Of a DNA stretch of 64,000 nucleotides, positions 12,245 to 64,000 are shown piece by piece. Under the pieces are notes generated by a model. It saw only the letters and a program-made list of their open reading frames with translations. It made no database searches and was not told the origin of the DNA. The stretch spans positions 31,962,698 through 32,026,697 of the forward strand of contig CAIIXF020000007.1 of assembly GCA_903813345.2 (NCBI GenBank), read 5' to 3'. Each line of letters begins with the position of its first letter. Position 1 is the stretch's first letter. The DNA is from Owenia fusiformis. Its lineage: Eukaryota > Annelida > Polychaeta > Sabellida > Oweniidae. Position numbers and translations under genes: made by a program.

Positions 12245-12337
12245 ATGGCAGCGGTTCAATCAAAGTCGGATAACAAGCTCTCTCTCGAAATAAGGACGAA
12301 ATCTGTCGAACAAACGTTGGTGCCATTGGTCACTCAG
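12245..12337 (+). CDS. CTNNAL1: Alpha-catulin, coding exon 1
   Basis: The ATG has a good context (AAAATGG) and opens 31 codons ending exactly at a donor, CAG|GTAGAA, phase 0. The peptide ends LEIRTKSVEQTLVPLVTQ, which matches the N-terminus of alpha-catulin (in vertebrates LEIKTRSVEQTLLPLVSQ). Alpha-catulin is a cytoplasmic scaffold of the alpha-catenin/vinculin family of roughly 730 residues. It is linked in other animals to Rho signalling, dystrobrevin binding and ion-channel placement. The next residues expected, ITTL..., are found at the start of the exon at 53551, so intron 1 is about 41 kb. The first 13 residues are variable in the family. Confidence 0.9.
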
Positions 12338-13112
12338 GTAGAATATTTGTATTATTTTACTTTCTTCAATTTCAGGCTAAAATTGTAAAAATTGCATATA
12401 GATATGTGGAGATATTTCTGATTGAATTCAATCAGGTTTTTCAGACAGTTCTGCAAAAATCTTCATGATGAGTCGAATGAAAACAAAATAGATATTGAAT
12501 CATAAGATAATCAGATGCTTATTTTCTTTTTTACTATGACATGTCATTACTTTTGTGCACATTATCTAGTGTTTTATTCAAGAGACCATGATCTTTGATA
12601 GTTGCCAAATATTGATTTTTGAAAAAATAATGCATATCTGTAAGTATTTGACATTTGAAGTGATATATTAGTTCACTTCTGGATTGCTAACTTAGAATTT
12701 ACAGCCAGTTACTAATGTCAGACATTAACAACATTTCGTCCAGTTTTTGAACATCGCCATTTTTCTTTGGAGCCATTTGTTTAATTTTAGACGAAATCCT
12801 GAAAAAATCATGCAATATCTCATCTTGCGATTTTTAAAATATTCAATAAATTTATGACACGCCAGCCAACTTTTTTCAAATGGAGTTTACAGTATTCCAG
12901 ATGATATTACATCTAGCCAAGAATTGGCTAGACTCGAGTAAGGTAGTGACATTCATGTCTTTCAATATCATTTTACAGGCCTGTAGCAAGGTGGAGCAGA
13001 GGGTATGGTCGCTCTCCCCTGGCCAGAAGTTTTTTTCAAAATATTGCAGTTTTTCACCATTCTGAGCACTTATTGCATGATCTTTTAGCCAAAACTGTCA
13101 AAAATGTCAAAA

Positions 13113-19577: not shown

Positions 19578-20395
19578 TATCATTTATAAATGATGAATGA
19601 TTAAAAAAGTATTAAAATCAAAGGATTAACTTTTAGTAAGGGAGTGTTTTTGTTTCTGGTATTATTTCAAAAGATAAGATAAAGTTGTCACTGTGGCTTG
19701 TTTTAGAAAAACAATATAAGAACATACAATGTCTTGTCTTTCAATATTAAGAACACACAGTGTCTTGTCTTTATATGAAGTATGTACTGCCTTTACAGTT
19801 CCTTGTTTGATCTTTACTAATGAATGTGTTAATGTAAATATTGAATAATGGAGAATTGGTTTGTAATAAACAGGATTATTCCAAGACATTCCTCTACCTT
19901 TGATACCATCAGATTTTACTTCAGCATGCATGTTTATCAAATTCTCTCTTCCTAGTTCTCAAAGAGATATTCAGTAGTAGTATAGAAATTTACAGATGCA
20001 AGATCAGAGCAGACTTGTGCTGATCTGTCCAGGTTTTGGCCATGCTGGGTAAATTTGTCAACAAAGTGTGATATTTATTGCTGTATTTCTTGTTATCAGA
20101 TTAGGTGAAAGGTATGTAACTTGAAAATAATCCCTGAGAGAACTTTACTGAGTTGTCAATAATGTTGCATTTCATGCAATAGTATCTTGCCGAATATAAA
20201 TTTATAGTTGGTAGTTTCTAGAGTATCAAGTGGGTCTATTTGTACATGTATGTTACATGTTGAAGCTGATAGTAACCATTCATGTAACTTTACATGCTAT
20301 CAGCTCTGATGTTGGCTTCTGTTGATAGTTCTGATAATAACAGGAATTGTATATAGAGAAGCTTTATTCCTCAACAGGTCTCAGTAGAGTGGATC

Positions 20396-20945: not shown

Positions 20946-21558
20946 GACCATACATGATGAGTGACACATTCATGGCATGCATGAATGGTTGCATTGATCT
21001 AACCATAGATATGACCATATATGATGAGTGACACATTCATGGCATGCATGAATGGTTGCATTGATCCAACCATAGATATGACCATACATGATGAGTGACA
21101 CATTCATGGCATGCATGAATGGTTGCATTGATCTATCCATAGATATGACCATACATGATGAGTGACACGTTCATGGCATGCATGAATGGTTGCATTGATC
21201 CAACCATAGATATGACCATACATGATGAGTGACACATTCATGGCATGCATGAATGGTTGCATTGATCTAACCATAGATATGACCATATATGATGAGTGAC
21301 ACATTCATGGCATGCATGAATGGTTGCATTGATCTAACCATAGATATGACCATATATGATGAGTGACACATTCATGGTATGCATGAATGGTTGCATTGAT
21401 CTAACCATAGATATGACCATACATGATGAGTGACACATTCATGGCTGCATGAATGGTTGCATTGATCTATCCATAGATATGACCATACATGATGAGTGAC
21501 ACGTTCATGGCATGCATGAATGGTTGCATTGATCCAACCATAGATATGACCATACATG
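20946..21558. repeat. Tandem array, 67-bp unit, 9 copies
   Basis: The unit starts GACCATACATGATGAGTGAC and contains an imperfect palindrome ATTCATGGCATGCATGAAT. Starts fall at 20946, 21013 and every 67 bp after that, with one 1-bp deletion (TTCATGGCTGCATG near 21442). Variable sites (ATCTAACC, ATCCAACC, ATCTATCC; ACACATTC, ACACGTTC) recur in a pattern suggesting duplication of blocks. Open frames on the minus strand here only translate the repeat, and a period not divisible by 3 breaks them. Confidence 0.95.
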
Positions 21559-28460: not shown

Positions 28461-28737
28461 TCCACATTTCATTTGTATCATCAAGTTGATATCTATGTAA
28501 ACCTTGTCATGAATTCTTTACTTTATTTGTTCAGCCTCAGCAAAGTCCTATATTCTGGGATTTATTGATTCTCATTTGTCTGGGCTTTGAGACACCCTAT
28601 TTTTATTGGCTTCCTATACATGCATGAAAAGCTAAAACAAGAAGTTGGAATTTGGAATGAATGGTAGTTTCCTAGGGCAGGACATACAATCCAAATCAAA
28701 TTATCTCTTATATCTTGAGTCCCTCTCACACAGTTGT

Positions 28738-31046: not shown

Positions 31047-32635
31047 ACTGTAAATGATTGATTTACTAGATGGTGGTTGAGTTATTCTCATTGTGTTGGA
31101 AAAGGACCAATATCTCAATATTTCTTCCATAAAATGAAACTAACACTATTACTTAACATTTGTTTTTATAATTTTAGAAATTGTTTCAATTAACATAACA
31201 CATATCATAATCCTATAATCTTGTAACATGGACTTTACCTAACTTTGCACACAATAAGTTTGATGGACATATAATGATAAATATGTATTGACCATGTTTC
31301 TTGACTGTGTCCGTCTTTGACTTCCAAGGTGTTGTGTGTTGAAGTTGGAGCAACTGAAACCTTGGGAATCAAGATAGACCTTGTCACTTTACATTTGTAT
31401 CATTATGACCTATTACACTCTTTCCAAGTCTTGCATCAAGCCATCCTACTCTTTCTAACAGTTCCATGCATTTTTCATAGGCATAATAACTAATGAAATG
31501 TTTTCAATTTGAATTTTTCATTGTTTATCACTTGCAAAGCTTTGTTGTACAAATCAACAAAATGCAAAAGTTGACTTTTATTCTTTTTTCTTTTGTTGTT
31601 GTCACTCATTATATTGACTGTTTCGTATTTTGCAAGTTTTGGTATAGTTTCCGATATTCTTGTATCCTTTGTTATTTCTTGAACATTTTGGCTGTAAGAA
31701 TGATGCGGAAATATTGCCTTGATATAACATTGCCAAGTCAAGGAAAGGTTAAGACAACCTATTACTGAGATATGAATAGTAAAAGTTAAAAGTCAGCAAT
31801 ACATTACATCTAATCAAATCAGTGTATTTCTATGCTTTTGGTCTAGTCATTCTGGGATAGCATGACATCCTTCCAATTGATTTTCTAGCAAACACTTTTT
31901 TGTTATGTGGAAAACTCAGAAATAATTGTAACATTTTTCTCTTGTTCTGTTGAGTCATAACCTCCTCAAGGAAAAGTCAATGCCTGCTTCAATTGGATAT
32001 ATTGCATATTCTAGACTAGATTTTACACTAGATTTCAAGTTCAATCTGTTATTGGATTTCTTTATTTGTAGATGTTTCAGAATAAGAGCTAAAATTGAAT
32101 TGTGTAAATTGATATGTATTTATATCTGCAGATAGGGGATATTGAAATCTATCACTCTCCTTGAATAAGGTTTGGAAATTATTGAAAAAAGGTATGATGT
32201 TATGAAATTCATAAAAGTTTCTGAAAAGCTTATAATCTTTTTTATTACCTTGAACATCTATTTCAAGAATTCCTATTATTTTATTTATAAGATTACATCA
32301 ATTTTATTTTAGTTTTATTTATTGTAAGGGTATCAATATATAGCAGGAATCACCAGTGAACCTCAATTGATGATTCATTTCTAAAGCGTCTCTAATGTTT
32401 TCAATCTATTCTTCAATATTTACAATTTTTGTTATTTTCATTGTTGATGTCCCGATCTTTTGCCTGTACAATTACAACATGTGAGAATAATCCATGCATC
32501 CTACACTTACAATAACCGCAATACATTCCTGAGTATTTTAGGACTCTTTTTATGTAGTTGAATCCATCCCCAATTGTATAGGTTTATCAGCAGAGTGATG
32601 AGATTTTCACAGAATAACACCAAGCCATTGTGAAC

Positions 32636-33251
32636 CTCTCTACCTGGGTTCCCACCACTGCACTGGATATGATGTAGATCTCTCTACCTGGGTTACCACC
32701 ACTGCACTGGATTTGATGTAGTTCTCTCTACCTGGGTTCCCACCACTACACTGGATATGATGTAGATCTCTCTACCTGGGTTCCCACCACTGCACTGGAT
32801 ATGATGTAGATCTCTCTACCTGGGTTCCCACCACTGCACTGGATATGATGTAGATCTCTCTACCTGGGTTCCCACCACTGCACTGGATATGATGTAGATC
32901 TCTCTACCTGGGTTCCCACCACTGCATTGGATATGATGTAGATCTCTCTACCTGGGTTCCCACCACTGCACTGGATATGATGTAGATCTCTCTACCTGGG
33001 TTACCACCACTGCACTGGATATGATGTAGATCTCTCTACCTGGGTTACCACCACTGCACTGGATTTGATGTAGTTCTCTCTACCTGGGTTCCCACCACTG
33101 CACTGGATATGATGTAGATCTCTCTACCTGGGTTCCCACCACTGCACTGGATATGATGTAGATCTCTCTACCTGGGTTCCCACCAATGTACTGGATATGA
33201 TATAGATCTCTCTACCTGGGTTCCCACCACTGCACTGGATATGATGTAGAT
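32636..33251. repeat. Tandem array, 44-bp unit, 14 copies
   Basis: The unit contains CTCTACCTGGGTTCCCACCA followed by CTGCACTGGATATGATGTAG. CCTGGG falls at 32643 and then every 44 bp up to 33215. A variant pair (TTACCACC with GATTTGATGTAGTTC) occurs at copy 2 and again at copy 10, suggesting that a multi-unit block was duplicated. Confidence 0.93.
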
Positions 33252-39341: not shown

Positions 39342-39589
39342 CGCGAACGTTGAATTTTTTTCCGGGTTCTAAAAATTTCCTGGTGAGAACCCTGTAATGT
39401 ATGGCTTAATTTGGGTGGCCAGATTTTGAATTTGCACCCTATTTTCTAAGATTGTTATATTAACTTTCATAAAATTATAGTCATTTCAATTGAACTTTTT
39501 TGTTTGATTTTGTTCATCATGGATACTTGCTTATTAACAATAGGTATGGTAAAATTCTTGCTTATTCAGTAATAAGTAAGGTTGTATTG

Positions 39590-46141: not shown

Positions 46142-47761
46142 GACTCCAGATTTCAGACTTTTTTTAAGCTGAGTCATCCAAATACTTGTAAGCTGAGTCA
46201 TTCAGAATAAGCTGAGTCAGCTAGAATATAGACATTTAGACAACTCTTAAGAATGTTATCTTCAACTCCATTGGCTTAACATGGGGATATCATCATATCG
46301 ACTTTTCGAGACTTCAAACCGCTATAACTATCTAATCAGAGGTTGGATCGAAATTTGGTTTAAAGATTCTGATTCCTGAGAAAATTCTACCCTTAATTCA
46401 TAACTCATACGTTAAATTTGGAGAACTTTTTATTTTGACCTACTTTTCAGACACCATATCTCAAAAGTGGGTCAAAATACTTTCTGATGGCAGAAGGCTA
46501 ACACTATAAGCACACTCTTTGCTACCTGTATACAAAATTTCGAAGCAAATCATTAAAGTGTAATGTCAGAATCGCAAAAATAAGGAAAAACTATGAATTT
46601 GACCTAGATTTTGACCTAGGCATTTTGGTGTCCAAATTTTAAAGCTAGATAGGCTTCGAGGTCCCTTTCTTTTATAGGCTTTCAGAATGTTAAGCTGTAC
46701 TCAGTTTATATCTGGTATTTTACACTTCAAAAAAATCTTTTTTCTCATTGACATAACATTGGGCACCAAATTTAGCGATTTTTGAGCTTTCAAAACGCCA
46801 TAACTTCCGAACCGAAAGTCGGATTGAAATTTGGTTTGCAGATTCGGATTGCTGGGTAAATTCTACCCTTAATTTATAGCTCATATGTTAAATGTGGAGA
46901 CCTTTTTATTTTGACCTACTTTCCGGACACCATATCTCAAAAGTGGGTCAAAATACTTTCTGACGGCAAAAGGCTAACACTATAAGCATACTTTTTGCTA
47001 TCTGTATACCAAATTTCAAGGAATATTATTAAAGTGTAGTGTCAGATTCGCAAAATTAAGGAAAAACTCTAAATTTTGACCTAGATTTTGACCTTGGCTT
47101 TTTAGTGTTCAAATTTTGAGACAAAGTAGATTTTGAGGTCAACTATTCTTGTAGGCTTTCATTATGTTGGCTGCATTAAGTCTAAATACCGTGATTTTCC
47201 AATTCATAATTTTCTTCAGCCCCATTGACTTAACATGGGGCACCAAAATAGCGATTTTTGAGACTTCAAACCGCCATAACTTTTGAACCGGAACTTGGAT
47301 TGAAATTTGGTTTGCAGATTCGGATTCCTGAGAAAATTCTACATATATTTCATAACTCGCACCTTGAATTTTGAGACTTTTTTGTTTTGACCTACTTTTC
47401 GGTCGCCATATTTAAAAATCGGTAAAAGTAATCAAAAATCTAATTTCATATCTTTGCTTCGGCTATTTCTTAACTACATAATGAAAAAAAGATGAAGGAG
47501 TTCCGATAATTATCGAAGAAGATAATTGAAAGAATGTTGAAAATGTAAGATTTGACCTAGTTCTTGACCTTTGACCTAAATAAAAATTTGACCTAATTTC
47601 CCAGAAAGCCAGATACATTCACTAGTCAACCATGTAGGTTGGATTAAGTAAGATGTTATAGTTGGAGAGAAAATCTGTTAGGAGGAAGAAGAAAGAAAAA
47701 AGAAAAAGAATAATAAGAAAACAGGCAAAAACAATAGACTCCAGATTTTCAATCTGGAGTC
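46142..47761. mobile_element. TAA-flanked element with three internal repeats of about 477 bp
   Basis: The left end GACTCCAGATT and the right end AATCTGGAGTC form an inverted repeat, flanked by TAA on both sides (46139-46141 and 47762-47764) as in PIF/Harbinger elements. The right end is itself a palindrome (GACTCCAGATT...AATCTGGAGTC, 47736-47761). The interior holds three diverged tandem copies, with the CATAACT-type landmark at about 46320, 46797 and 47272. Each copy contains TTTTATTTTGACCTACTTT and AATTTTGACCTAG phrases. There is no transposase frame, so it is non-autonomous. Confidence 0.7.
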
Positions 47762-48099
47762 TAATAATAACATAGAGGCATAAAAGTGAAAAAGTGTGGC
47801 TTTAAGGTGTTCACTACAGAGAGGTGTTCAGTAATGAATTTGTAGAACATAATAGAACCTGCGTCCTATTGGTGAAGACTATTAACCAAGGACAGGGTTT
47901 GCTTTACTTGCAATTTATTACCAGTTTCCACATAAGCATATTACACAAAAGACAAACCATGATAAAACTGCCATATATCTTTATTTTCCTGGAGAGGTAT
48001 AAATGTAAGAAAAAATGTTATTAGTGTTTTTATAATATTTATTGATTATTAACTGGTATCAGTATAAGGGATCGCAAAACATTTCAAGAAAAGGGCACT

Positions 48100-51169: not shown

Positions 51170-51296
51170 GCCCAAATCAACCATTGAGAACATGCTAACC
51201 TAAACGCTTTACACAGAGTGAGTTATATAGAGAACGAACCTTAAAAGCTTTACACAGAGTGAGCTATACAACAGAACCAACCCTAAAAGCTTTACA
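51170..51296 (+). pseudogene. Decayed partial copy of catulin exon 2 plus first minisatellite units
   Basis: AATCAACCATTGAGAACATG at 51176-51195 matches AATCACCGAGAACATGC of the true exon (53566-53582), and an AG is present at a similar distance upstream (CTTCCAG). It is followed by about 2.5 units of the 42-bp repeat (AAAAGCTTTACACAGAGTGA) until a transposon interrupts it. Read together, an ancient duplication of part of exon 2 seeded the array. The copy has lost the donor half. Confidence 0.6.
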
Positions 51297-53199
51297 CACG
51301 CCTTACCATCGCGTAAGCAGGCGTCACCGTACAGCGTAAAAAAATAGCGGAGTACAGTTTTCTGTACGGTAACGCAAATTAACTGCTTTGAAGCAAAAAC
51401 TATGACAAGGGTTTAAAAAAATTAATTTGATGAAAACGAATACGATTTCATGTGAAATAAAAACAGCATTAATACTTCCTGTCCGCCTGTCCGCCATCTT
51501 AAATGCGAAGGTGACGGCTGTAACCTTCGCTTGATACTTACCAGTGATAATGTACATGTAGATCTGACGCTTCTTTACCTCTTGTTCGAACAGTAAGATT
51601 AGAGCACTTCATAAAATCTAAGGAAGCGTCACCGTACAGCTGATGCGTCACCGTACAGTTCTGATCTTTTTTAAATAAATACACTGAATGATTATTTGCC
51701 GAATATTCATCTGTTCTAAATGTGTAGATAACAAATACATATTCTCATAAAAATAATCCATACTCTCAGACGACAGGGAAAATAATAACCAAACGAAAAG
51801 TGAAAAAAACACCATTTTTCTCTCGAGTCGATTATGTGGGCCGATCCAGTCAGAAAAAATCCGAGCAGTGCTCGAAAAACTTTTATCATAATTAGAAAGT
51901 TAAAACCATTCCTAAGAGAATGCTGTTTTTATTATCCCATCGAACGAAGTTCGGAGGGATATAGGGAACGCCTCCGTCCGTCCGTCCGTCCGTCCGTCCG
52001 TCCGTCCGTCCGTCTGTCCGTCCGTCTGTCCGTCCGTCTGTCCGTCCGTCCGGGCAATAACTCAAATACCGTTAGCCCGATTTTGTTCATATTTTGTACA
52101 CATATACCCTATGGGGGAAGAAGTTCTGCTCAAAAGCCTATTTTCAAAATGGCTGCTCATTTAAAAATGGCAGCCATCTTAGTGCCGATTTTACAGTAAT
52201 TTAGGTGCAATATGTAAAACTGTTATAGGAATATGTTTTAAATGTGAAAAAATTACAAAGGACATTAATAAAGCTAGAAATGTAGATATTAAAGAAGCGC
52301 ATGGCAGCCATCTTGAAAAATGGCGGCCTTTACTCGTAATTTTATGATTTTTGCTGTTACTCGAAAAGTAGTGGAGCGATTTTGTTCATATTTGGTATAA
52401 GAATACTATAAGCATGGCACACTGTCTAATAATACTTTTGGAAGAAGGCGGCCATTTTGAAAAATGGCAGCCATTTTGAAAAATGGCCGCCATTTTAACG
52501 TATTTTACTATAATTCGAAAAGTAGTGGAGCGATTTTGTTCATATTTGGTATGTGAATTCTATAAGCATAGCACACTGTCTGGTTACACTTTTGGTAGAA
52601 GGCGGACATTTTGAAAAATGGCTGCCATTTTAACGTTTTTTACTATAACTCGAAAAGTAGTGAAGCGATTTTGTTAATATTTGGTATGTGAATACTATAA
52701 GCATGGCACACTGTCTAATGACACTTTTGGTAGAAGGCGGCCATTTTAACGTATTTTACACACTGTCTAGTTACACTTTTGGTAGAAGGTGGCCATTTTG
52801 AAAAATGGCCGCCATTTTAACGTTTTTTACTATAACTCGAAAAGTAGTGAAGCGATTTTGTTCATATTTGGTATGTGAATACTATAAGCATATCACACTG
52901 TCTAATGACACTGTCTAATGGTAGAAGGTGGCCATTTTGAAAAATGGCTGCCATTTGTGCTATATACTTTGTTTGTAAATATGCAAGCCATGGCTGTTCG
53001 ATGGGATTCGCTACGCTTTGGCGTTGCCGTTGTTCTGGTTACACCCGAAATCCTTTTATTTTCATCTAATTAATATTTTTAAAACCCTCATTATAGTTTT
53101 TGCTTCAACTCAGTTAATTTTCATCACCATACAGAAAACTGTACTACTGTTTTTTTTTACGCTGTACGGTGACGCCTGCTTACGCGATGGTTAGGCGTG
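51297..53199. mobile_element. 1.9-kb DNA transposon with nearly identical 48-bp inverted ends
   Basis: The left end starts CACGCCTTACCATCGCGTAA and the right end, reverse-complemented, CACGCCTAACCATCGCGTAA. Both continue identically through GCAGGCGTCACCGTACAG to an A-rich stop, with one mismatch in about 48 bp. TTACA flanks both sides (51292-51296 and 53200-53204). The motif GCGTCACCGTACAG also occurs subterminally near 51626 and 51645. No transposase is recognisable; the interior is largely taken up by a second element (51934-53007). The superfamily is unclear: the CAC... ends plus 5-bp duplication do not settle it. Confidence 0.85.
51934..53007. mobile_element. Nested element with ATCCCATCGAAC ends, (CCGT)n tract and internal repeats
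   Basis: It begins ATCCCATCGAACGAAGTTCG and ends GTTCGATGGGAT, a perfect 12-bp inverted repeat. A (CCGT)n/(CTGT)n tract lies at 51974-52052. From about 52330 to 52950 there are at least four diverged tandem units (130-190 bp) containing TCGAAAAGTAGTGGAGCGAT, CACACTGTCTAAT and AAAATGGCCGCCATTTT. The serine/proline/arginine/valine-rich frame across the CCGT tract is a repeat translation. Related sequence is found at 57650-58230. Confidence 0.75.
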
Positions 53200-53204
53200 T
53201 TACA

Positions 53205-53516
53205 CAGAGTTGGCTATACAACAGTTCCAACCCTAAAAGTTTGACACAGAGTGGGCTATACAACAGAACCAACCGCAAAAGCTTTACACAGAGTGGGCTA
53301 TACAACAGAACCAACCCTAAAAGCTTTACACAGAGTGGGCTATACAACAGAACGAATCCTAAAAGCTTTACACAGAGTGGGCTTTACAACAGAATGAATC
53401 CTAAAAGCTTTACACAGAGTGGGCTATATAACAGAACCAACCCTAAAAGCTTTATACAGAGTGGGCTATATAACAGAACCAACCCTAAAAGCTTTACACA
53501 GAGTGGGCTATATAAC
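53205..53516 (+). repeat. 42-bp minisatellite copied from alpha-catulin exon 2
   Basis: Seven or so units of 42 bp contain AACCAACCCTAAAAGCTTTA followed by CACAGAGTGGGCTATACAAC. The coding exon just downstream contains AACGAACCCTAAAAGCCTTA followed by CACAGGGTGGGCC, the same sequence in one copy. In the catulin frame each unit reads TEPTLKALHRVGYI against TERTLKALHRVGQA in the exon. The array lies in the intron directly before the acceptor and continues the block at 51196-51296, split by the transposon. Confidence 0.88.
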
Positions 53517-53550: not shown

Positions 53551-53740
53551 ATCACAACTCTAGTCAATCACCGAGAACATGCTAAGCTCACAGAACGAAC
53601 CCTAAAAGCCTTACACAGGGTGGGCCAGGCTGTGCAGTTAGCCGTTGAGAGGTTTGTCACAGTAGGCGAGTCTATAGGAGAAGACAATGAAGAGATCAGA
53701 AGTGATATGTGTGTTGCCTGCAAGGACGCTAGAACTGCAG
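53551..53740 (+). CDS. CTNNAL1: Alpha-catulin, coding exon 2
   Basis: This 190-bp exon lies between the acceptor TCATTTGCAG and the donor GCAG|GTTAGT. It enters in phase 0, matching exon 1, and leaves after the first base of a codon. The 63 full codons begin ITTLVNHREHAKLTERTLKA and include LHRVGQAVQLAVERFVTVGE. This aligns along its whole length with vertebrate alpha-catulin (ITTLINHKD..., LQRVGQAVNLAVGRFVKVGE) and with the start of the alpha-catenin/vinculin helical bundle. The exon is highly conserved between phyla and is far more GC-rich than the intron. The next expected segment (ETIAALTDI-like) is not visible in the remaining 10 kb. Confidence 0.92.
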
Positions 53741-58240: not shown

Positions 58241-58315
58241 CACTGTCTAATTCATGAAATATCATCAGCTGACTGAAGCGAATGATTGATTGATTGTAAC
58301 ATTATAATATTGCAG

Positions 58316-58329: not shown

Positions 58330-58614
58330 ATGTCTCTTAAGTATATTACACTGGTGCTTGTACTGGAAATGGTTAGCTACGGATTTACAGATTCCATACT
58401 TGACACGAACAGCACGGGCCTTATGAACAACACTGCCCCCATAAACAACGCTGCCCTCACGCCATGTATGCCTTGCATCCTGAAGACTGTTAAGTGCTCT
58501 CCTATTGAAGACAGGGATAAGAAGAAGAAATGTTTCACTAACATCTACAATAAATGTGCTAAAAAGAAATGCCCAATATCGAAGCCTAAAACCAAGAAAG
58601 GAAAAAAAGGTTGA
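58330..58614 (+). CDS. Secreted cysteine-rich peptide 1, lysine-rich tail
   Basis: A complete 94-residue frame. Residues 1-20 form a signal peptide (K4, hydrophobic 5-15, likely cut near 18-22). Residues 21-45 are a spacer rich in Asn and Thr with two N-glycosylation sequons (N27-S-T and N33-N-T). A six-cysteine core lies at 46, 49, 56, 68, 76 and 81 (spacing C-x2-C-x6-C-x11-C-x7-C-x4-C), with CMPCILKTV and CF-x-NIYNKC. The last 13 residues are lysine-rich. A paralogue lies 4.5 kb downstream on the same strand. AATAAA is at 58804-58809. The six cysteines suggest three disulfides. I do not recognise the family: secreted peptides of this layout may be antimicrobial, signalling, matrix or other, and the sequence does not decide between them. 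Confidence 0.82.
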   Translation: MSLKYITLVLVLEMVSYGFTDSILDTNSTGLMNNTAPINNAALTPCMPCILKTVKCSPIEDRDKKKKCFTNIYNKCAKKKCPISKPKTKKGKKG

Positions 58615-58803
58615 ACATCATTCAAGTGGTGGATGTGACTTATTATTTGTGCATGCACAAGATTGTAAACATGTTATTATATAACATATTAAATATGGAT
58701 GATTAACCTAATCTTTCTGGAAAATTCTGCAGACTGAAGGCATCATTATTTCATCATAAATTATGATTTAGGGAAGGCTTCTTGGAATGTATGAGTAATT
58801 ATC

Positions 58804-58809
58804 AATAAA
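58804..58809 (+). terminator. Polyadenylation signal of peptide gene 1
   Basis: AATAAA lies 190 bp after the stop codon and is followed by a T-rich stretch (TTATTTTTTGTATGG) suitable as a downstream element. A weaker ATTAAA-like site lies near 58688. Confidence 0.55.
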
Positions 58810-60050
58810 TTTTAAGTATTATCTTATTTTTTGTATGGTTACAATTAATCAGATTAATATAGATATTGGAAAACATAAGAAATTACAAATTGCAACAAAC
58901 GTCCCAGCGTCCCAGCGAGGAAAATGTTGGTGTTGTTAACCAAAATAATGACGAAATTCAACTCTAAATGTCTTTCAGTCAGTGAAATCTGTCATAAAGT
59001 GTCAGATGTTTTCCATTTGTGTTATAATTTTCACATTATAATTTGTGTTCTTACTTGTTGAGCAAGATGAGGTATTATGTCATAAATAAGTCCCATTCCT
59101 ATCTCTTGTTGGGAGAAAAATTTGAATGTTGAAATAAGGTTAGGGATATGAATAACATAAAATAGAATGTTTTAATTCCAGCAAAGATTGAAACAGGGTA
59201 TATAAAGCTTTTAACCCGTTATGTCACCACCTCAAGAGTTGTGTGTTCAGGGTCTGCGTTTGGTGGTCAGCTTCTGTAACAAATGGCAGGCGGTGTTATT
59301 TTTGCATGTGAATGCCTATTGTATGAACATTTTAAAATCCTTTGACATGTGCATTATGGTGGTTCTTAAGAATTGTATTTGATTGTGTAGAAATGTGATC
59401 CTTGAGAGATAAGTTCTCTTTGTAGTATTTACTTGCCTGAATAGGTATACAGATAAAAGGAAATGCATGCAGTTGTAATTACCCTTGCACACCCAATGGG
59501 AAAGTAATCTCTTGGAGCCCCCAGTAAATTCATTGCAAGAGATGAATTCTGCAAGAGAAATGTGCAAATTTTAGAGGATTTCTTGGCATTTCCTAATGAA
59601 AAAGAAGACAGAAATTATTGATGGCAGTATACAATACAATATAACATTGTAGATTGAATCATGGGAAAAGCAATGACTTTGAATAGACTGAATCGAGTGA
59701 TGAATAATGTGATAGGTACATATATTAACTTATGCTCCCACCTAGTGAGACAATTAAAAATCAATAAAATTAAATTTGATTTGCATTTTTGGCTATTTGT
59801 GAGTTTTAGCTAATTCCATCCATATTCCCAAAGACAGAATTCTAGGAGTGATGATACATATAATACATGTTATTAAAAACATATATCTTTTGACTAGGCT
59901 CATAAAGACTTCAGTATGACTAAAATGACTTACTGCACAAAGTGAGTGTGTTGTATTGACATATTCAAAAAATATTAAGCTAGTGATCGATGGGATTTCC
60001 TCTGAATAGTTTTCATTACAATACTTACAAGTTATAATTATCATATACTA

Positions 60051-61114
60051 CAGGGTGTTCCAAAAGTAACAGGACTGGTGCTGGCATTTTGTCAATTCTG
60101 CACTGAGTGTCTTCATATTTTCAGAAATTTTACTTTGAAGTATTGCAACTAAGATTAAAGATTTTCAAAAAAAATGATTAAATGCGGACAGAGTTATGGT
60201 TACTATAGTAACATGACATCACAATACCCGGGGCAACTTTTTCATGAAGATGTGATATCCAATAATTTTGTATTACTGAAGAAAGTATCTAATTCAGCTA
60301 TTACAATACAACATTTCTTTTTGTTTTATTAGTTGCTTTGTATAATGGTGTTGCTATACAACTCAAATTCAAGCATTATTTCATAATAATAATATTTATT
60401 CAATTTCCTTGAATAATGTATTCAATTTCCTTGAATCTATGTATAACAGTCTGCACAATTCACGGTTGAGTTTTTGAAAAGGCCCAATTTGAAGCCAGTC
60501 ATTCAACTTGATAACACGCCTGCCTGCAAGTCAGCATTAAAGGCCACTGCAGCTATAAAAGAGTTAGGTCTTGAGGTCTAAGACCATGCACCATACTCTT
60601 CTGATCATGCAATATCCAATTTTTACTTAAATGGAGAATGGATCGAATGCTAATCAGCGCGGTAAGACCTTTAAGATGAGATTGACCTTCTCCAAGTTGT
60701 CCAATTGACCCTGCGATGTCCTCAAATGGGTTCACTCATGCGTTTGAGTCCTGGATACAGAGTTCTACTCTTGTACTGACCAAAGAGGAGTCCATTTTTC
60801 AAAAAGAGGATACAAAGGAATATCAAATGATGTAAACCAAAAGTGTAATTCCCACCAGTTGTTGCATTTCAACTTTGATATGGGATGTACAAAATGCTTA
60901 AAGTCTGTGTAGCTTTCTGTGTGGAATGTTGCCCCGGGTATTGTGATGTCATGTTACCATAGCAACCATAACTGTGCCCGGGTTTTATAATTTTTGTCGA
61001 AACTTTGCATTTTTTATCACAATACATGAAAGTACATTATGTAAAATTTTGAAGACAATCTGTGCATATTCAACAAAATACCAGCACCAGTCCTGTTACT
61101 TTTGGAACACCCTG
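60051..61114. mobile_element. Mariner-type element with about 190-bp inverted ends
   Basis: Ends CAGGGTGTTCCAAAAGTAAC and its complement are flanked by TA (60049-60050 and 61115-61116). The inverted similarity continues inwards for about 190 bp with gaps: CAGTTATGG, AACATGACATCACAATACCC and GGGGCAAC appear inverted at 60190-60237 and 60931-60975. Between the arms is a decayed transposase (about 60483-60780). Such long inverted ends are unusual for a mariner. The element is dead as it stands. Confidence 0.82.
60483..60780 (+). pseudogene. Decayed mariner transposase, C-terminal half
   Basis: In one frame the text reads PNLKPVIQLDNTPACKSAL and, after an in-frame stop, APYSSDHAISNFYL. These correspond to the second catalytic aspartate region (LDN) and the YSPDLAPSD motif of Tc1/mariner transposases. 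The position of the third catalytic aspartate appears to be Asn. There are several stop codons further on. The N-terminal DNA-binding region is missing. Confidence 0.7.
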
Positions 61115-61801
61115 TATGAGTTAGTACTTCTTTTTATATTCAACATCTTAATTGATTGGCATGAACAGTTTTGTTGACAAATACTTTGATCTGTAGAATT
61201 TTACAAATTAATTCATAAGAGATTATTTTTAATTGCATTATCTAAATTGCATTGGATATAATTCTTGTCCTAATACAAAATAAAGCATTCAATTATTCTT
61301 TATGCTTCAACTCCCTGAAATCAATTAATGATATTTAAGAGTTTTCATATGAAATTATGACATTGCTATAAATGAAATAGGAGTGGATAATTATATAACT
61401 GAGGTGAGTTTTAAGTCTTTTTATATTAACAATCTATGCAAAGTTAATTGCTTATAGTCTCAAATATAACTGCAACCAAAATTTAATTTTGCATGGTTCT
61501 GATTCCATGTTTTAACTATTAGAACTGCATATTAGCGGTTTACTTTTGACTTTTGAGATAAGCCAGGGGTTTCACTAGGATTTCTCACAACAGGCTAAGT
61601 AAATGAAAACAACATGTGAAATTAATGGAAATCATAAATTTAACATGGAAAAGTTGAAAAGTCCCAATAAACAACAGGTGATTTTGTGAAAACAACCATG
61701 AAAATCACTTGTTGCCTGTTGCTCATGAAACCCCTGTTAGCATATGGTTATCTAGTTGTGAAATTTTGTTACCATAGTACTGATCAAAATATAGCAATAT
61801 A

Positions 61802-62403
61802 CAGGGTGGGCCAAAATAAACGCCACTTTTTTTTTCAAAATGCTTTTAATTTTTTTAATTTTTGATATTAAATCATAATTTGCATACAAAATGAAACTTG
61901 AGGTTGTAATCTAGCCATGGATCATAAATTATATACTTTTATTTTAATAAAATGTGTCACCAGCGTCTCACTTAAATATGTGGTGTGCCATGAGAAATAA
62001 GCATAATTCGCAAAATGTTCCTGAACTGATACGGTCTGATGTCCGCCAAGCTAATAGCCCTGATGCAACCCCAGTGAGTATAGGGTATGGGAAGGTCTCC
62101 GGGAGATTGTATAAGGACACCCCATCTAGAAAATTGCTCAACTAAAGCTGGCAATTAAGACAAGTTAAAAAAAACTTAGCTAACATGTCATTGATACTGC
62201 AATACCAGCAAGGCGACTAAAACTAAAATATATCATTAATTAAGGTGGCGGACCAATTGAACTCCCCTTTTAGATCAAATATAATCCAAGTTAAAGGACT
62301 TGTTACATTATATTATTACTAACAACCCTTGGCACTATATAACTGCAAAATTTGGGGTATGTAGGCTGGAAAATAAAAAAGTTGAGTTTTTTGGCCCACC
62401 CTG
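61802..62403. mobile_element. TA-flanked mariner-like element, 602 bp
   Basis: Perfect ends CAGGGTGGGCCAAAA and TTTTGGCCCACCCTG (15 bp) are flanked by TA (61800-61801 and 62404-62405). The interior has a GC-richer piece (about 61955-62145) reading NVPELIRSDVRQANSPD, reminiscent of the C-terminal part of mariner transposases, but with no catalytic motif. It is probably a deletion derivative. Confidence 0.75.
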
Positions 62404-62790
62404 TACATTTGATTCTTCATTTATAACTGAAGTACCAACACCTTTGCTACTTGGAAATATGCTTCCTATTTGTAAGTGCTTTTATGGATTAAACCTCTTG
62501 ATTAATTATTCAACACAATATTTGTTAAGATTCTCTTGCATTGGTGTTATTTATTGCTTTTTCAAATAAAAAGTCATTAAAATTATCTTGTTTCAAATAT
62601 CACCTGCAGACAATGAATGTTTGACACAAAAAATATTATAATATCAGTTAGCAAGAGAAGTTCTCCAAATGTGATATTTATTATCTGATTATTCACTTTG
62701 AGAATCTGTCATTCCAGTTACATATCCGAGGGAATGTAATACACACTACTATACCCCCATACTGTATCCTGTATTCCTTTAAAAGAAGTA

Positions 62791-62990
62791 CAGGCTACAT
62801 GGAAGTTGCAAATGGAGGACGTTTCTTTATTTCCATAGTTCTGAATGTATACTAGATTTTACACATATTCTAAGAGTTTTACTATACATTGTATAGATTC
62901 ATCGAGCAGTTTGCAACGTATTATTACCAGAAAAGCCCAATGGACAAAGATAGAGAGTACCCGCTCCATTTGCAACTTAACCGTACCCTG
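62791..62990. mobile_element. TA-flanked MITE, 200 bp
   Basis: The left end CAGGCTACATGGAAGTTGCA and the reverse complement of the right end (CAGGGTACGGTTAAGTTGCA) share the outer CAGG and an inner AAGTTGCAAATGGAG. TA lies on both sides (62789-62790 and 62991-62992). No coding capacity. Confidence 0.68.
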
Positions 62991-63098
62991 TATCATTTTT
63001 AAATGTGGTCACGTGGTAGGGTAGTGTGAATAGCAAATAAGATATAAGTATGATACCCAGTATAAGTGAATGTGAGAACCTCATTTTTTACATTGCAG

Positions 63099-63111
63099 AA
63101 GTGGATAAAAG
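63099..63111 (+). other. 5' leader of peptide gene 2, from a splice acceptor to the ATG
   Basis: TTTTTTACATTGCAG ending at 63098 is a strong acceptor. The 13-base leader ends AAAAG before the ATG, as in gene 1. The acceptor-to-ATG architecture is thus conserved between the paralogues. No upstream exon is identified. Confidence 0.6.
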
Positions 63112-63390
63112 ATGCATATAAAAGCTTCAACAAGTTTGTTGGTAATCTTCATGGTTGGGTGCATTGCACTGCCAGTCATTGAGTCCAGTACAATATGCAT
63201 GCCTTGCATCATCAAGACTGTTTCCCCATGTTCACAGTATAGTGGACTTGACGAAAGAGTGAAAAAGGCGACATGTTTCAAGAGGATTTACAATAATTGC
63301 AGGAAAAAGAAATGTCCGGATCTTGATGATGATAATGATGATAATGATGATGATGATGCAGATGATAATGAGGCAGATAATGAAAAATAA
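63112..63390 (+). CDS. Secreted cysteine-rich peptide 2, aspartate-rich tail
   Basis: A complete 92-residue frame. Residues 1-26 are a signal peptide (hydrophobic 8-20, one Cys at 17 inside it). The core cysteines are at 29, 32, 40, 55, 63 and 68 (C-x2-C-x7-C-x14-C-x7-C-x4-C). Shared stretches with peptide 1 are CMPCI-x-KTV, TCF/KCF-x-x-IYN-x-C and KKKCP. The spacer present in peptide 1 is absent. After C68 comes a tail of about 23 residues, roughly two thirds Asp or Glu, encoded largely by GAT repeats, so it may have grown by trinucleotide expansion. An acidic tail could bind calcium or a basic partner; that is inference. Homology with gene 1 makes both more credible as real genes. Family not recognised. 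Confidence 0.83.
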   Translation: MHIKASTSLLVIFMVGCIALPVIESSTICMPCIIKTVSPCSQYSGLDERVKKATCFKRIYNNCRKKKCPDLDDDNDDNDDDDADDNEADNEK

Positions 63391-63426: not shown

Positions 63427-63432
63427 AATAAA
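63427..63432 (+). terminator. Polyadenylation signal of peptide gene 2
   Basis: AATAAA lies 37 bp after the stop, with a GT/T-rich stretch (TTGTTTGATCTTGTGTATTT) starting about 20 bp beyond it. A standard short 3' UTR. Confidence 0.7.
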
Positions 63433-63529
63433 CTGCATGAAACTATCATATTGTTTGATCTTGTGTATTTGTTTTTTGGAAAGGGTATTGTATACTATTT
63501 AATGAATACAACACTGAAGCTGTAGTGTA

Positions 63530-63852
63530 CACAGTAAACATTTCTCAATATTGATTCAATGAAAAATCAACATTCATTCAACATTGATTTTCTCACGCGT
63601 TGATAAAGCCATAATTGCCCTTCAGTGTTAAATTGAAGCTAGATTCAGGCTTGAATCAATGCTGATTCAACACTTGATTCAGTGTTGGTATTCAGACTTG
63701 ATTCAAGGTGGAGGATATCAGTGTTGAATCAAGCTTGATTTTAAGGTTCATTCAGGATTGAGGTTTTTATGTTGAATCACGCTTGATATCAAGATTAAAT
63801 TAACCCCGATTTGCCATCAACCTTGATTCAACCTTGAGAAATGTTTGCTGTG
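63530..63852. mobile_element. TA-flanked MITE rich in TTGATTCAA motifs
   Basis: The ends CACAGTAAACATTTCTCAA and (reverse-complemented right end) CACAGCAAACATTTCTCAA are inverted with one mismatch and flanked by TA (63528-63529 and 63853-63854). The 323-bp interior repeats TTGATTCAA/TTGAATCAA-type words more than ten times in both orientations, so almost the whole element can fold back. No coding capacity. Confidence 0.8.
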
Positions 63853-64000
63853 TATTTGTAGTTCTCAATTTAGGAACTCCTATCTCTGTGTCATTTGGAT
63901 TTTACCGCAAGGGGACACTTCAACAGTGTTTGTTTGCCTCATTCTTAGAAGGATTTTTTGGAATGATCTCACAACATGAATAGTTGAAAGTATGACTCAC

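What the first reader, a model, noticed from the sequence alone, without database searches (positions are those of the whole stretch)
58330..63390. Tandem paralogous secreted six-cysteine peptides with oppositely charged tails
Two complete small genes on one strand share a signal peptide, a six-cysteine core (CMPCI-x-KTV ... IYN-x-C-x-KKKCP) and an identical 3' cysteine spacing (x7, x4). The tails have diverged to opposite charge: lysine-rich in one, aspartate-rich in the other. I do not recognise the family. A pair with complementary tails could act together by charge pairing, or be specialised for different surfaces or for calcium. What is seen is the genes and the homology; the pairing idea is inference.
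Basis: partly seen in the sequence, partly recalled or inferred. Interest (0 to 1): 0.85.

Follow-up and report, generated by a model that had tools for sequence, protein, structure and literature searches.

The report
Two secreted peptides with opposite-charge tails
Two neighbouring genes of an unidentified animal, probably lying inside an intron of an alpha-catulin-like gene, encode related small peptides with the same positively charged six-cysteine core but one lysine tail and one aspartate tail; they look like lineage-specific defence or matrix peptides of a broadly familiar kind.

Summary
Two single-exon ORFs on the + strand (58330-58614, 63112-63390) are true paralogues: pairwise E 6e-13, local score 124 against at most 62 in shuffles, changes concentrated at third codon positions (pN/pS 0.38, bootstrap 0.17-0.75). 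Both have a hydrophobic N-terminus, a +8 core spaced C-x2-C-x6/7-C-x11/14-C-x7-C-x4-C, and unrelated charged tails (+6 in 13 residues; -14 in 24). The Asp tail is written by a GAT/TGA microsatellite. No Pfam, NCBIfam or significant PDB-sequence match; no animal protein collection was available. Two-row AlphaFold models of modest confidence give a two-helix hairpin; cysteine spacing suits nested disulfides. New here: the pair lies downstream of two exons of an alpha-catulin-like gene, probably inside its second intron. Closest published analogues are accripin11 (bivalve shell) and mytilins (mussel defence); neither cysteine framework matches. Best reading: cationic hairpin peptides, defence-like or matrix-like, whose simple-sequence tails set net charge. 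Nothing found supports charge pairing between the two. Species and expression unknown.

The parts
58330..58614 (+). Gene 1 coding sequence (94 aa, one exon), six-Cys peptide with Lys-rich tail
   Evidence: in-frame TGA two codons before the ATG
58330..58389 (+). Gene 1 hydrophobic N-terminus, signal-peptide-like (cleavage assumed after residue 18 or 20; several later sites also pass a simple -3,-1 rule)
   Evidence: best 12-mer hydropathy 2.0; cleavage is inference
58465..58572 (+). Gene 1 six-Cys core, 36 aa, charge +8
58573..58611 (+). Gene 1 tail, 13 aa, charge +6
63112..63390 (+). Gene 2 coding sequence (92 aa, one exon), six-Cys peptide with Asp-rich tail
   Evidence: in-frame TAA two codons before the ATG
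63112..63168 (+). Gene 2 hydrophobic N-terminus, signal-peptide-like (residues 1-19, cleavage assumed), holds a seventh Cys (residue 17)
   Evidence: best 12-mer hydropathy 3.1; Cys
63196..63315 (+). Gene 2 six-Cys core, 40 aa, charge +8
63316..63387 (+). Gene 2 tail, 24 aa, charge -14 (12 Asp, 2 Glu), mostly encoded by a GAT/TGA trinucleotide array (63324-63371; 12-base period to 63383)
58310..58315 (+). TTGCAG acceptor-like site 14 nt before the gene 1 ATG: 5'UTR intron or trans-splice site
   Evidence: sequence; inference, no transcript
63093..63098 (+). TTGCAG acceptor-like site 13 nt before the gene 2 ATG
   Evidence: sequence; inference, no transcript
58804..58809 (+). AATAAA, candidate polyadenylation signal of gene 1 (an ATTAAA lies at 58688)
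63427..63432 (+). AATAAA, candidate polyadenylation signal of gene 2
12245..12337 (+). Exon 1 of an alpha-catulin-like gene (31 codons); context of the pair, not part of it
   Evidence: 69.6% identity over 23 aa, E 5e-5, to a recalled catulin probe; no Pfam family up to E 1; ATG and GT donor read from sequence
53551..53740 (+). Exon 2 of the alpha-catulin-like gene; the six-Cys pair lies downstream, probably in its intron 2
   Evidence: Pfam Vinculin E 3e-8 and 9e-8, 32.9 and 31.4 bits, below the curated cut-off of 38.1; best PDB-sequence matches are alpha-catenins, E 0.004; catulin probe E 1e-18

Best explanation
Shown: two paralogous genes, each with its coding sequence in one exon, for small peptides with a +8 six-cysteine core kept by purifying selection, tails without detectable homology, and opposite tail charge. 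Inferred: both are secreted; the core is a two-helix hairpin tied by three nested disulfides (C1-C6, C2-C5, C3-C4). The constant cationic hairpin binds anionic surfaces (microbial envelopes, anionic glycans or matrix), and the short low-complexity tail, free to drift by repeat slippage, sets the net charge and so the place and strength of binding. The Lys-tailed form (about +12 after assumed signal removal) would be the strongly binding, host-defence-like one. The Asp-tailed form (about -7) would be self-masked, as proposed for mytilin precursors, until cleavage, salt, calcium or a competing surface frees the core. Defence is my leading function; an extracellular-matrix or mineral role is the close second.
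For: Core constrained: third positions differ at 20 of 39 codons against 6 and 9 at first and second; pN 0.23, pS 0.60. Core charge +8 in both, tails +6 and -14. Most of the gene 2 tail lies in a trinucleotide array. Both AlphaFold models give helix-loop-helix, with mean pLDDT of 76-86 in the three ten-residue blocks that cover most of the core. Among all 15 disulfide pairings the nested one gives the most constant residue sum in both proteins (range 3 and 2); random spacings reach this in 8.5% and 3.8%. Published precedent: mytilins have a cationic eight-Cys core followed by an anionic C-terminal extension, and pseudomytilins have a +8/+10 core with only a weakly negative extension (PMC7168163 passages).
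Against: Helix 2 is not more amphipathic than shuffles in either protein (68% and 44% of 5000 shuffles reach the observed moment), which speaks against simple membrane lysis. No dibasic site lies between core and tail in protein 2, so tail removal has no obvious protease. Foldseek finds nothing up to E 10 for protein 1 and, for protein 2, two matches, the better being Nigellin-1.1 at E 6.0, probability 0.20. Models have mean pLDDT 67.5 and 65.2, pTM 0.44 and 0.43, and rest on two sequences whose alignment does not set the third cysteines against each other. The nested-spacing result is not rare by chance and the two proteins are not independent. Acrorhagin I, a published peptide of the same hairpin kind, is reported not to be membranolytic (PMC11896702 passage). 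No transcript, species or assay.
Confidence: 0.38

Rival explanations
1. Matrix or mineral proteins that work like accripin11: the disulfide-tied helical pair anchors in an organic matrix and the tail meets mineral ions, the Asp tail calcium or carbonate surfaces, the Lys tail carbonate or acidic matrix proteins.
For: accripin11 of Pinna nobilis has a basic-enriched part, predicted antiparallel disulfide-tied helices and a disordered Asp-rich tail, and the recombinant protein affects CaCO3 precipitation in vitro; the C-termini of its six relatives are all acidic to different degrees and vary in length, with poly-Asp in the three Pinctada proteins (PMC9808598). A Lys-rich region of KRMP-3 is proposed to interact with carbonate and acidic proteins (PMC4498902 passages). 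Protein 2 has the same layout.
Against: The accripin cysteine pattern C-x3-C-x6-C-x3-C-x12-C-x3-C-x6-C-x3-C is not met. Whether the animal has a shell or skeleton is unknown.
Confidence: 0.27
2. Helical-hairpin toxin or toxin-like neuropeptide of the acrorhagin I kind, with the tail as a cleaved or retained extension.
For: Octocoral acrorhagin-like peptides are small, predicted hairpins with three or four disulfides, from intronless duplicated genes, one of them cleaved at its C-terminus (PMC11896702 passages). Predicted hairpin here.
Against: Foldseek returned no animal toxin: 0 matches for protein 1 and 2 for protein 2 at E up to 10; no significant PDB sequence match; animal unknown; slow amino-acid change (pN/pS 0.38) is not the pattern expected of fast-evolving venom (inference).
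Confidence: 0.13
3. The two peptides work as a pair held by their opposite tails.
For: Tail charges +6 and -14 and adjacency.
Against: Both cores are +8, so the Asp tail can pair with its own core; tails are unequal in length and charge, and one is mostly a microsatellite.
Confidence: 0.06
4. The tails are neutral drift: a GAT repeat expansion and a Lys-rich end without special role, and only the core matters.
For: Tail sequences no more alike than shuffles (48%); most of the gene 2 tail lies in a trinucleotide array.
Against: Charge this extreme is unlikely to be without physical effect (inference); nothing was measured.
Confidence: 0.14

Closest known systems
Accripin11 and its six bivalve relatives (shell or presumed shell proteins)
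   Same: Small, secreted, basic-enriched part with predicted antiparallel disulfide-tied helices, disordered acidic C-terminus of variable length, poly-Asp in Pinctada (PMC9808598, sections 6 and part 1 of 11 read; passages)
   Different: Eight cysteines in another pattern; longer (103 residues mature); no Lys-tailed member described in the parts seen
Mytilins and pseudomytilins (mussel antimicrobial peptides)
   Same: Signal peptide, cationic Cys-rich core, anionic C-terminal extension; pseudomytilins lack the matching negative charge (PMC7168163 passages)
   Different: Eight-Cys CS-alpha-beta array; genes of four exons; not a helical hairpin
Acrorhagin I and octocoral acrorhagin-like peptides (disulfide-stabilised helical hairpins)
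   Same: Short hairpin with three to four disulfides and intronless duplicated genes (octocoral; PMC11896702 passages); C-terminus of acrorhagin I differs in length between species (PMC11952004 passages)
   Different: No sequence or fold match obtained here; no charged tails described in the passages seen
Nigellin-1.1 (plant alpha-hairpinin)
   Same: Two-helix hairpin; the better of two Foldseek matches of protein 2, E 6.0, TM 0.59 by target
   Different: Not significant; from a plant, with a four-Cys alpha-hairpinin framework (both recalled)
Nemertean A-toxins, parborlysins and B-neurotoxins
   Same: Marine, basic, largely helical, three or four disulfides; B-IV is a helical hairpin (PMC6410017 passages)
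   Different: A-toxins and parborlysins are about 10 kDa, B-IV has four disulfides; sequences not compared

Membership tests
Accripin family | Eight cysteines, C-x3-C-x6-C-x3-C-x12-C-x3-C-x6-C-x3-C | tested here: not met
   Six core cysteines spaced 2,6,11,7,4 and 2,7,14,7,4 against the pattern in PMC9808598
Accripin family | Acidic C-terminus | tested here: inconclusive
   Met in protein 2 (-14), opposite in protein 1 (+6)
Accripin family | Two antiparallel disulfide-tied helices | tested here: inconclusive
   Two main helices predicted with mean pLDDT 65-68; coordinates and disulfides not seen
Mytilins | C-x3-C-x3-C-x4-C-x11-C-x-C-x-C-x2-C array | tested here: not met
   against PMC7168163
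Mytilins | Anionic C-terminal extension after a cationic core | tested here: inconclusive
   Met in protein 2 only
Mytilins | Four exons | tested here: inconclusive
   Each coding sequence is one exon from ATG to stop, against four exons in mytilin genes; 5'UTR exons are possible and transcripts were not available
Disulfide-stabilised helical hairpin (acrorhagin I type) | Two helices cross-linked by three or more disulfides | tested here: inconclusive
   Helices predicted; spacing fits nested pairing; Foldseek not significant
Disulfide-stabilised helical hairpin (acrorhagin I type) | Intronless coding sequence (octocoral members) | tested here: met
   Coding sequences uninterrupted; feature from PMC11896702
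Saposin-like proteins | About 80-residue five-helix SapB domain (recalled) | tested here: not met
   Core is 36-40 residues; no Pfam family up to E 10 for either protein
Other Cys-rich families held in Pfam | Match to the family's Pfam profile | tested here: not met
   0 families up to E 10 for 2 of 2 proteins; HMMER filters can hide weak matches

The most novel reading that the evidence does not exclude
An undescribed animal family of disulfide-tied helical-hairpin peptides, nested in an alpha-catulin intron, in which tandem copies are kept with opposite tail charge so that one binds anionic and the other cationic or calcium-bearing surfaces, possibly as a working pair.
Probability: 0.12. Interest if true: 0.6.

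Novelty: new member of a known kind. Interest (0 to 1): 0.36.

Why it matters
If orthologues keep the same core with opposite tails, the pair would be a clean natural test of how a simple-sequence tail, written by a microsatellite, redirects a small cationic peptide to another surface, and of whether mineral-matrix and defence peptides share one scaffold. If not, it is one more lineage-specific pair of small secreted Cys-rich genes.

Tried and rejected
Known families: Pfam and NCBIfam gave nothing up to E 10 for 2 of 2 proteins. The PDB sequence search gave nothing up to E 10 for protein 1 or for the protein 2 core. For whole protein 2 it listed 6 sequences, E 0.18 or worse, and for the two-row profile 1 sequence, E 5.9; the alignment shown for the profile hit, a RAD6 ubiquitin-conjugating enzyme, runs into its acidic end, so I read these as matches to acidic low complexity.

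Microbial or viral origin: scans of viral contigs and of prokaryote genome contigs with the two-row alignment found pattern matches (138 and 71 stretches) but no relative by tblastn at E up to 1e-3. These scans start from two short peptide patterns each, so distant relatives can be missed. Rfam at gathering thresholds and ARAGORN found nothing in the window.

More copies in the window: tblastn of both proteins and both cores over both strands (best 15 hits printed per query) gave only the two genes; the next best hits had E 0.044 (whole protein 2), 3.4 (whole protein 1), 0.63 and 1.1 (cores), and none shown has the full set of six cysteines. Copies beyond 64000 cannot be tested.

Literature by motif: 'CMPCI' gave 3 papers, unrelated by their listings; four longer motif strings gave 1 paper, unrelated by its listing. 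Concept searches, seen as listings, led to the analogues named. Eight papers were opened: PMC9808598 (two sections and passages), and passages only of PMC11896702, PMC6410017, PMC7168163, PMC4498902, PMC11952004, PMC4536745 and PMC11299110; the last two added nothing used. That the family is not described rests only on these searches of open-access papers and on the profile libraries; animal protein databases were not available.

Membrane lysis by an amphipathic helix was considered and weakened: hydrophobic moments are not above shuffles. Accripin, mytilin and saposin-like membership were considered and rejected on cysteine pattern or size (see membership test). Positive selection on the core as a whole was considered and rejected (0.2% of 2000 bootstraps have pN/pS of 1 or more).
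Full report
Observation. Both genes are real in the sense a genome alone can show. Each is an open reading frame from ATG to stop without an intron, each has an in-frame stop exactly two codons before its ATG (TGA AAG ATG and TAA AAG ATG), each has a TTGCAG acceptor-like site 14 or 13 bases before the ATG and an AATAAA downstream. The acceptor sites suggest a spliced 5' leader, by a cis intron or by trans-splicing; no transcript was available.

Homology. The proteins match over the core (45.4 bits, E 6e-13; score 124 against shuffle maxima of 54 and 62). Over 39 aligned codons, 20 third positions differ against 6 first and 9 second; pS is 0.60 and pN 0.23, ratio 0.38 with a bootstrap interval of 0.17-0.75, and 0.2% of 2000 bootstraps reach 1. 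So the core has been kept by purifying selection since a duplication that is not recent. DNA similarity between the regions stops at the core. The N-terminal parts are weakly similar (1.55% of 2000 shuffles reach the score) and the tails not at all (48%). Two frames of this six-Cys spacing occur in the window and none in 60 first-order Markov windows.

Anatomy. Protein 1: hydrophobic N-terminus, an Asn/Thr-rich linker with two N-glycosylation sequons (residues 27 and 33), core +8, tail of 13 residues at +6. Protein 2: hydrophobic N-terminus with an extra Cys, a short linker, core +8, tail of 24 residues at -14. Without the first 20 or 19 residues the net charges are +12 and -7. Most of the tail of gene 2 falls in a TGA/GAT trinucleotide array at 63324-63371 and a 12-base array to 63383, which suggests growth by slippage (inference). 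There is no dibasic site between the core and the tail of protein 2.

Fold. AlphaFold2 on two-row alignments gave mean pLDDT 67.5 (protein 1, pTM 0.44) and 65.2 (protein 2, pTM 0.43), with helices at model residues 7-13 and 22-40, and 10-16, 18-22 and 26-45. Foldseek against the PDB found nothing at E up to 10 for the first and two matches for the second, the better being Nigellin-1.1 at E 6.0, probability 0.20, the other a kinetochore protein at E 9.9. The fold is thus a consistent but weak prediction. Apart from the models, the nested disulfide pairing gives the most constant residue sum of all 15 pairings in both proteins; random spacings do as well in 8.5% and 3.8%, so this is support, not proof, and the two proteins are not independent.

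Surroundings. A frame ending at 53742 matches the Pfam vinculin family (E 3e-8, 32.9 bits, under the curated cut-off of 38.1; 31.4 bits for the trimmed exon). Of 9 PDB sequences matched up to E 1, 7 are alpha-catenins, the best at E 0.004. A recalled, approximate alpha-catulin probe matched this exon at E 1e-18 and a second place at 12281-12349 at E 5e-5. I read them as exon 1 (12245-12337, with ATG and GT donor) and exon 2 (53551-53740, AG and GT) of an alpha-catulin-like gene with a 41-kb first intron; the name catulin, as against catenin, rests on the recalled probe. The same probe found no convincing third exon up to 64000 (best hit in that stretch E 1.3). So the six-Cys pair most likely lies in intron 2, on the same strand. 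This also indicates animal DNA; the species could not be named, since no genome is held. Between the two genes lie at least three inverted-repeat elements that look like short transposons, 60049-61116, 61796-62409 and 62778-63003.

Relatives. None in Pfam or NCBIfam, none significant in PDB sequences, none in viral contigs or prokaryote genome contigs. Animal sequence collections were not on hand, so absence of relatives says little about the family's range.

Function. The shared, constrained part is a small strongly cationic six-Cys core. The variable part is the tail. In mytilins a cationic Cys-rich core is followed by an anionic extension thought to aid folding and neutralise the core, and pseudomytilins have a +8 to +10 core without matching negative charge (PMC7168163, passages seen). 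[quoted passage not shown] the recombinant protein affects CaCO3 precipitation (PMC9808598, two sections and passages seen). Octocoral acrorhagin-like peptides belong to a large superfamily of intronless duplicated genes and are predicted to form a disulfide-stabilised helical hairpin; acrorhagin I itself is reported not to be membranolytic (PMC11896702, passages seen). The pair here works like these in layout but fails the cysteine patterns of accripins and mytilins. I therefore commit to a cationic hairpin whose tail tunes surface binding, with defence a little ahead of matrix, and give it 0.38. Against it: no amphipathic excess in helix 2, no processing site, no expression data.

Verdict. 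A sound observation of a real paralogous pair, of a broadly familiar kind, with one attractive feature (opposite tails on one core) whose meaning needs orthologues. Charge pairing between the two is the least supported reading.

Noticed in passing
window 53200-53516 and 51199-51298, with 53589-53630: A 42-bp minisatellite (7.5 copies, plus 2.4 copies of a 41-bp form 2 kb upstream) just before alpha-catulin exon 2 matches the exon's own coding sequence at 35 of 42 bases (best of 200 shuffles of the exon 24), so array and exon seem to share an origin, perhaps a copy of the exon; the frame from 53398 stays open through the end of the array into the exon.
   Followed up: partly
window 12338-53550: The presumed intron 1 of the alpha-catulin-like gene is about 41 kb and holds many tandem arrays, among them 25 bp x18 at 20394, 67 bp x9 at 20946, 111 bp x17.6 at 28733, 44 bp x14 at 32636, 49 bp x12.6 at 39579, 476 bp x2.4 at 46258, 81 bp x7 at 48090.
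   Followed up: no
window 60049-61116, 61796-62409, 62778-63003, 63528-63854: Four inverted-repeat elements (arms 192, 41, 40 and 32 nt) around the two genes, two with CAGGGTG near their ends, likely non-autonomous DNA transposons.
   Followed up: no
window 31493-31792, - strand: A 100-aa frame has a weak Pfam match to a tRNA ligase kinase domain (E 2.6e-4, 21.6 bits, under the cut-off of 22.7), one of 20 frames scanned; perhaps chance.
   Followed up: no
window 63642-63796: Degenerate repeats of TTGAATCAAG-like units within an inverted-repeat element just after gene 2.
   Followed up: no
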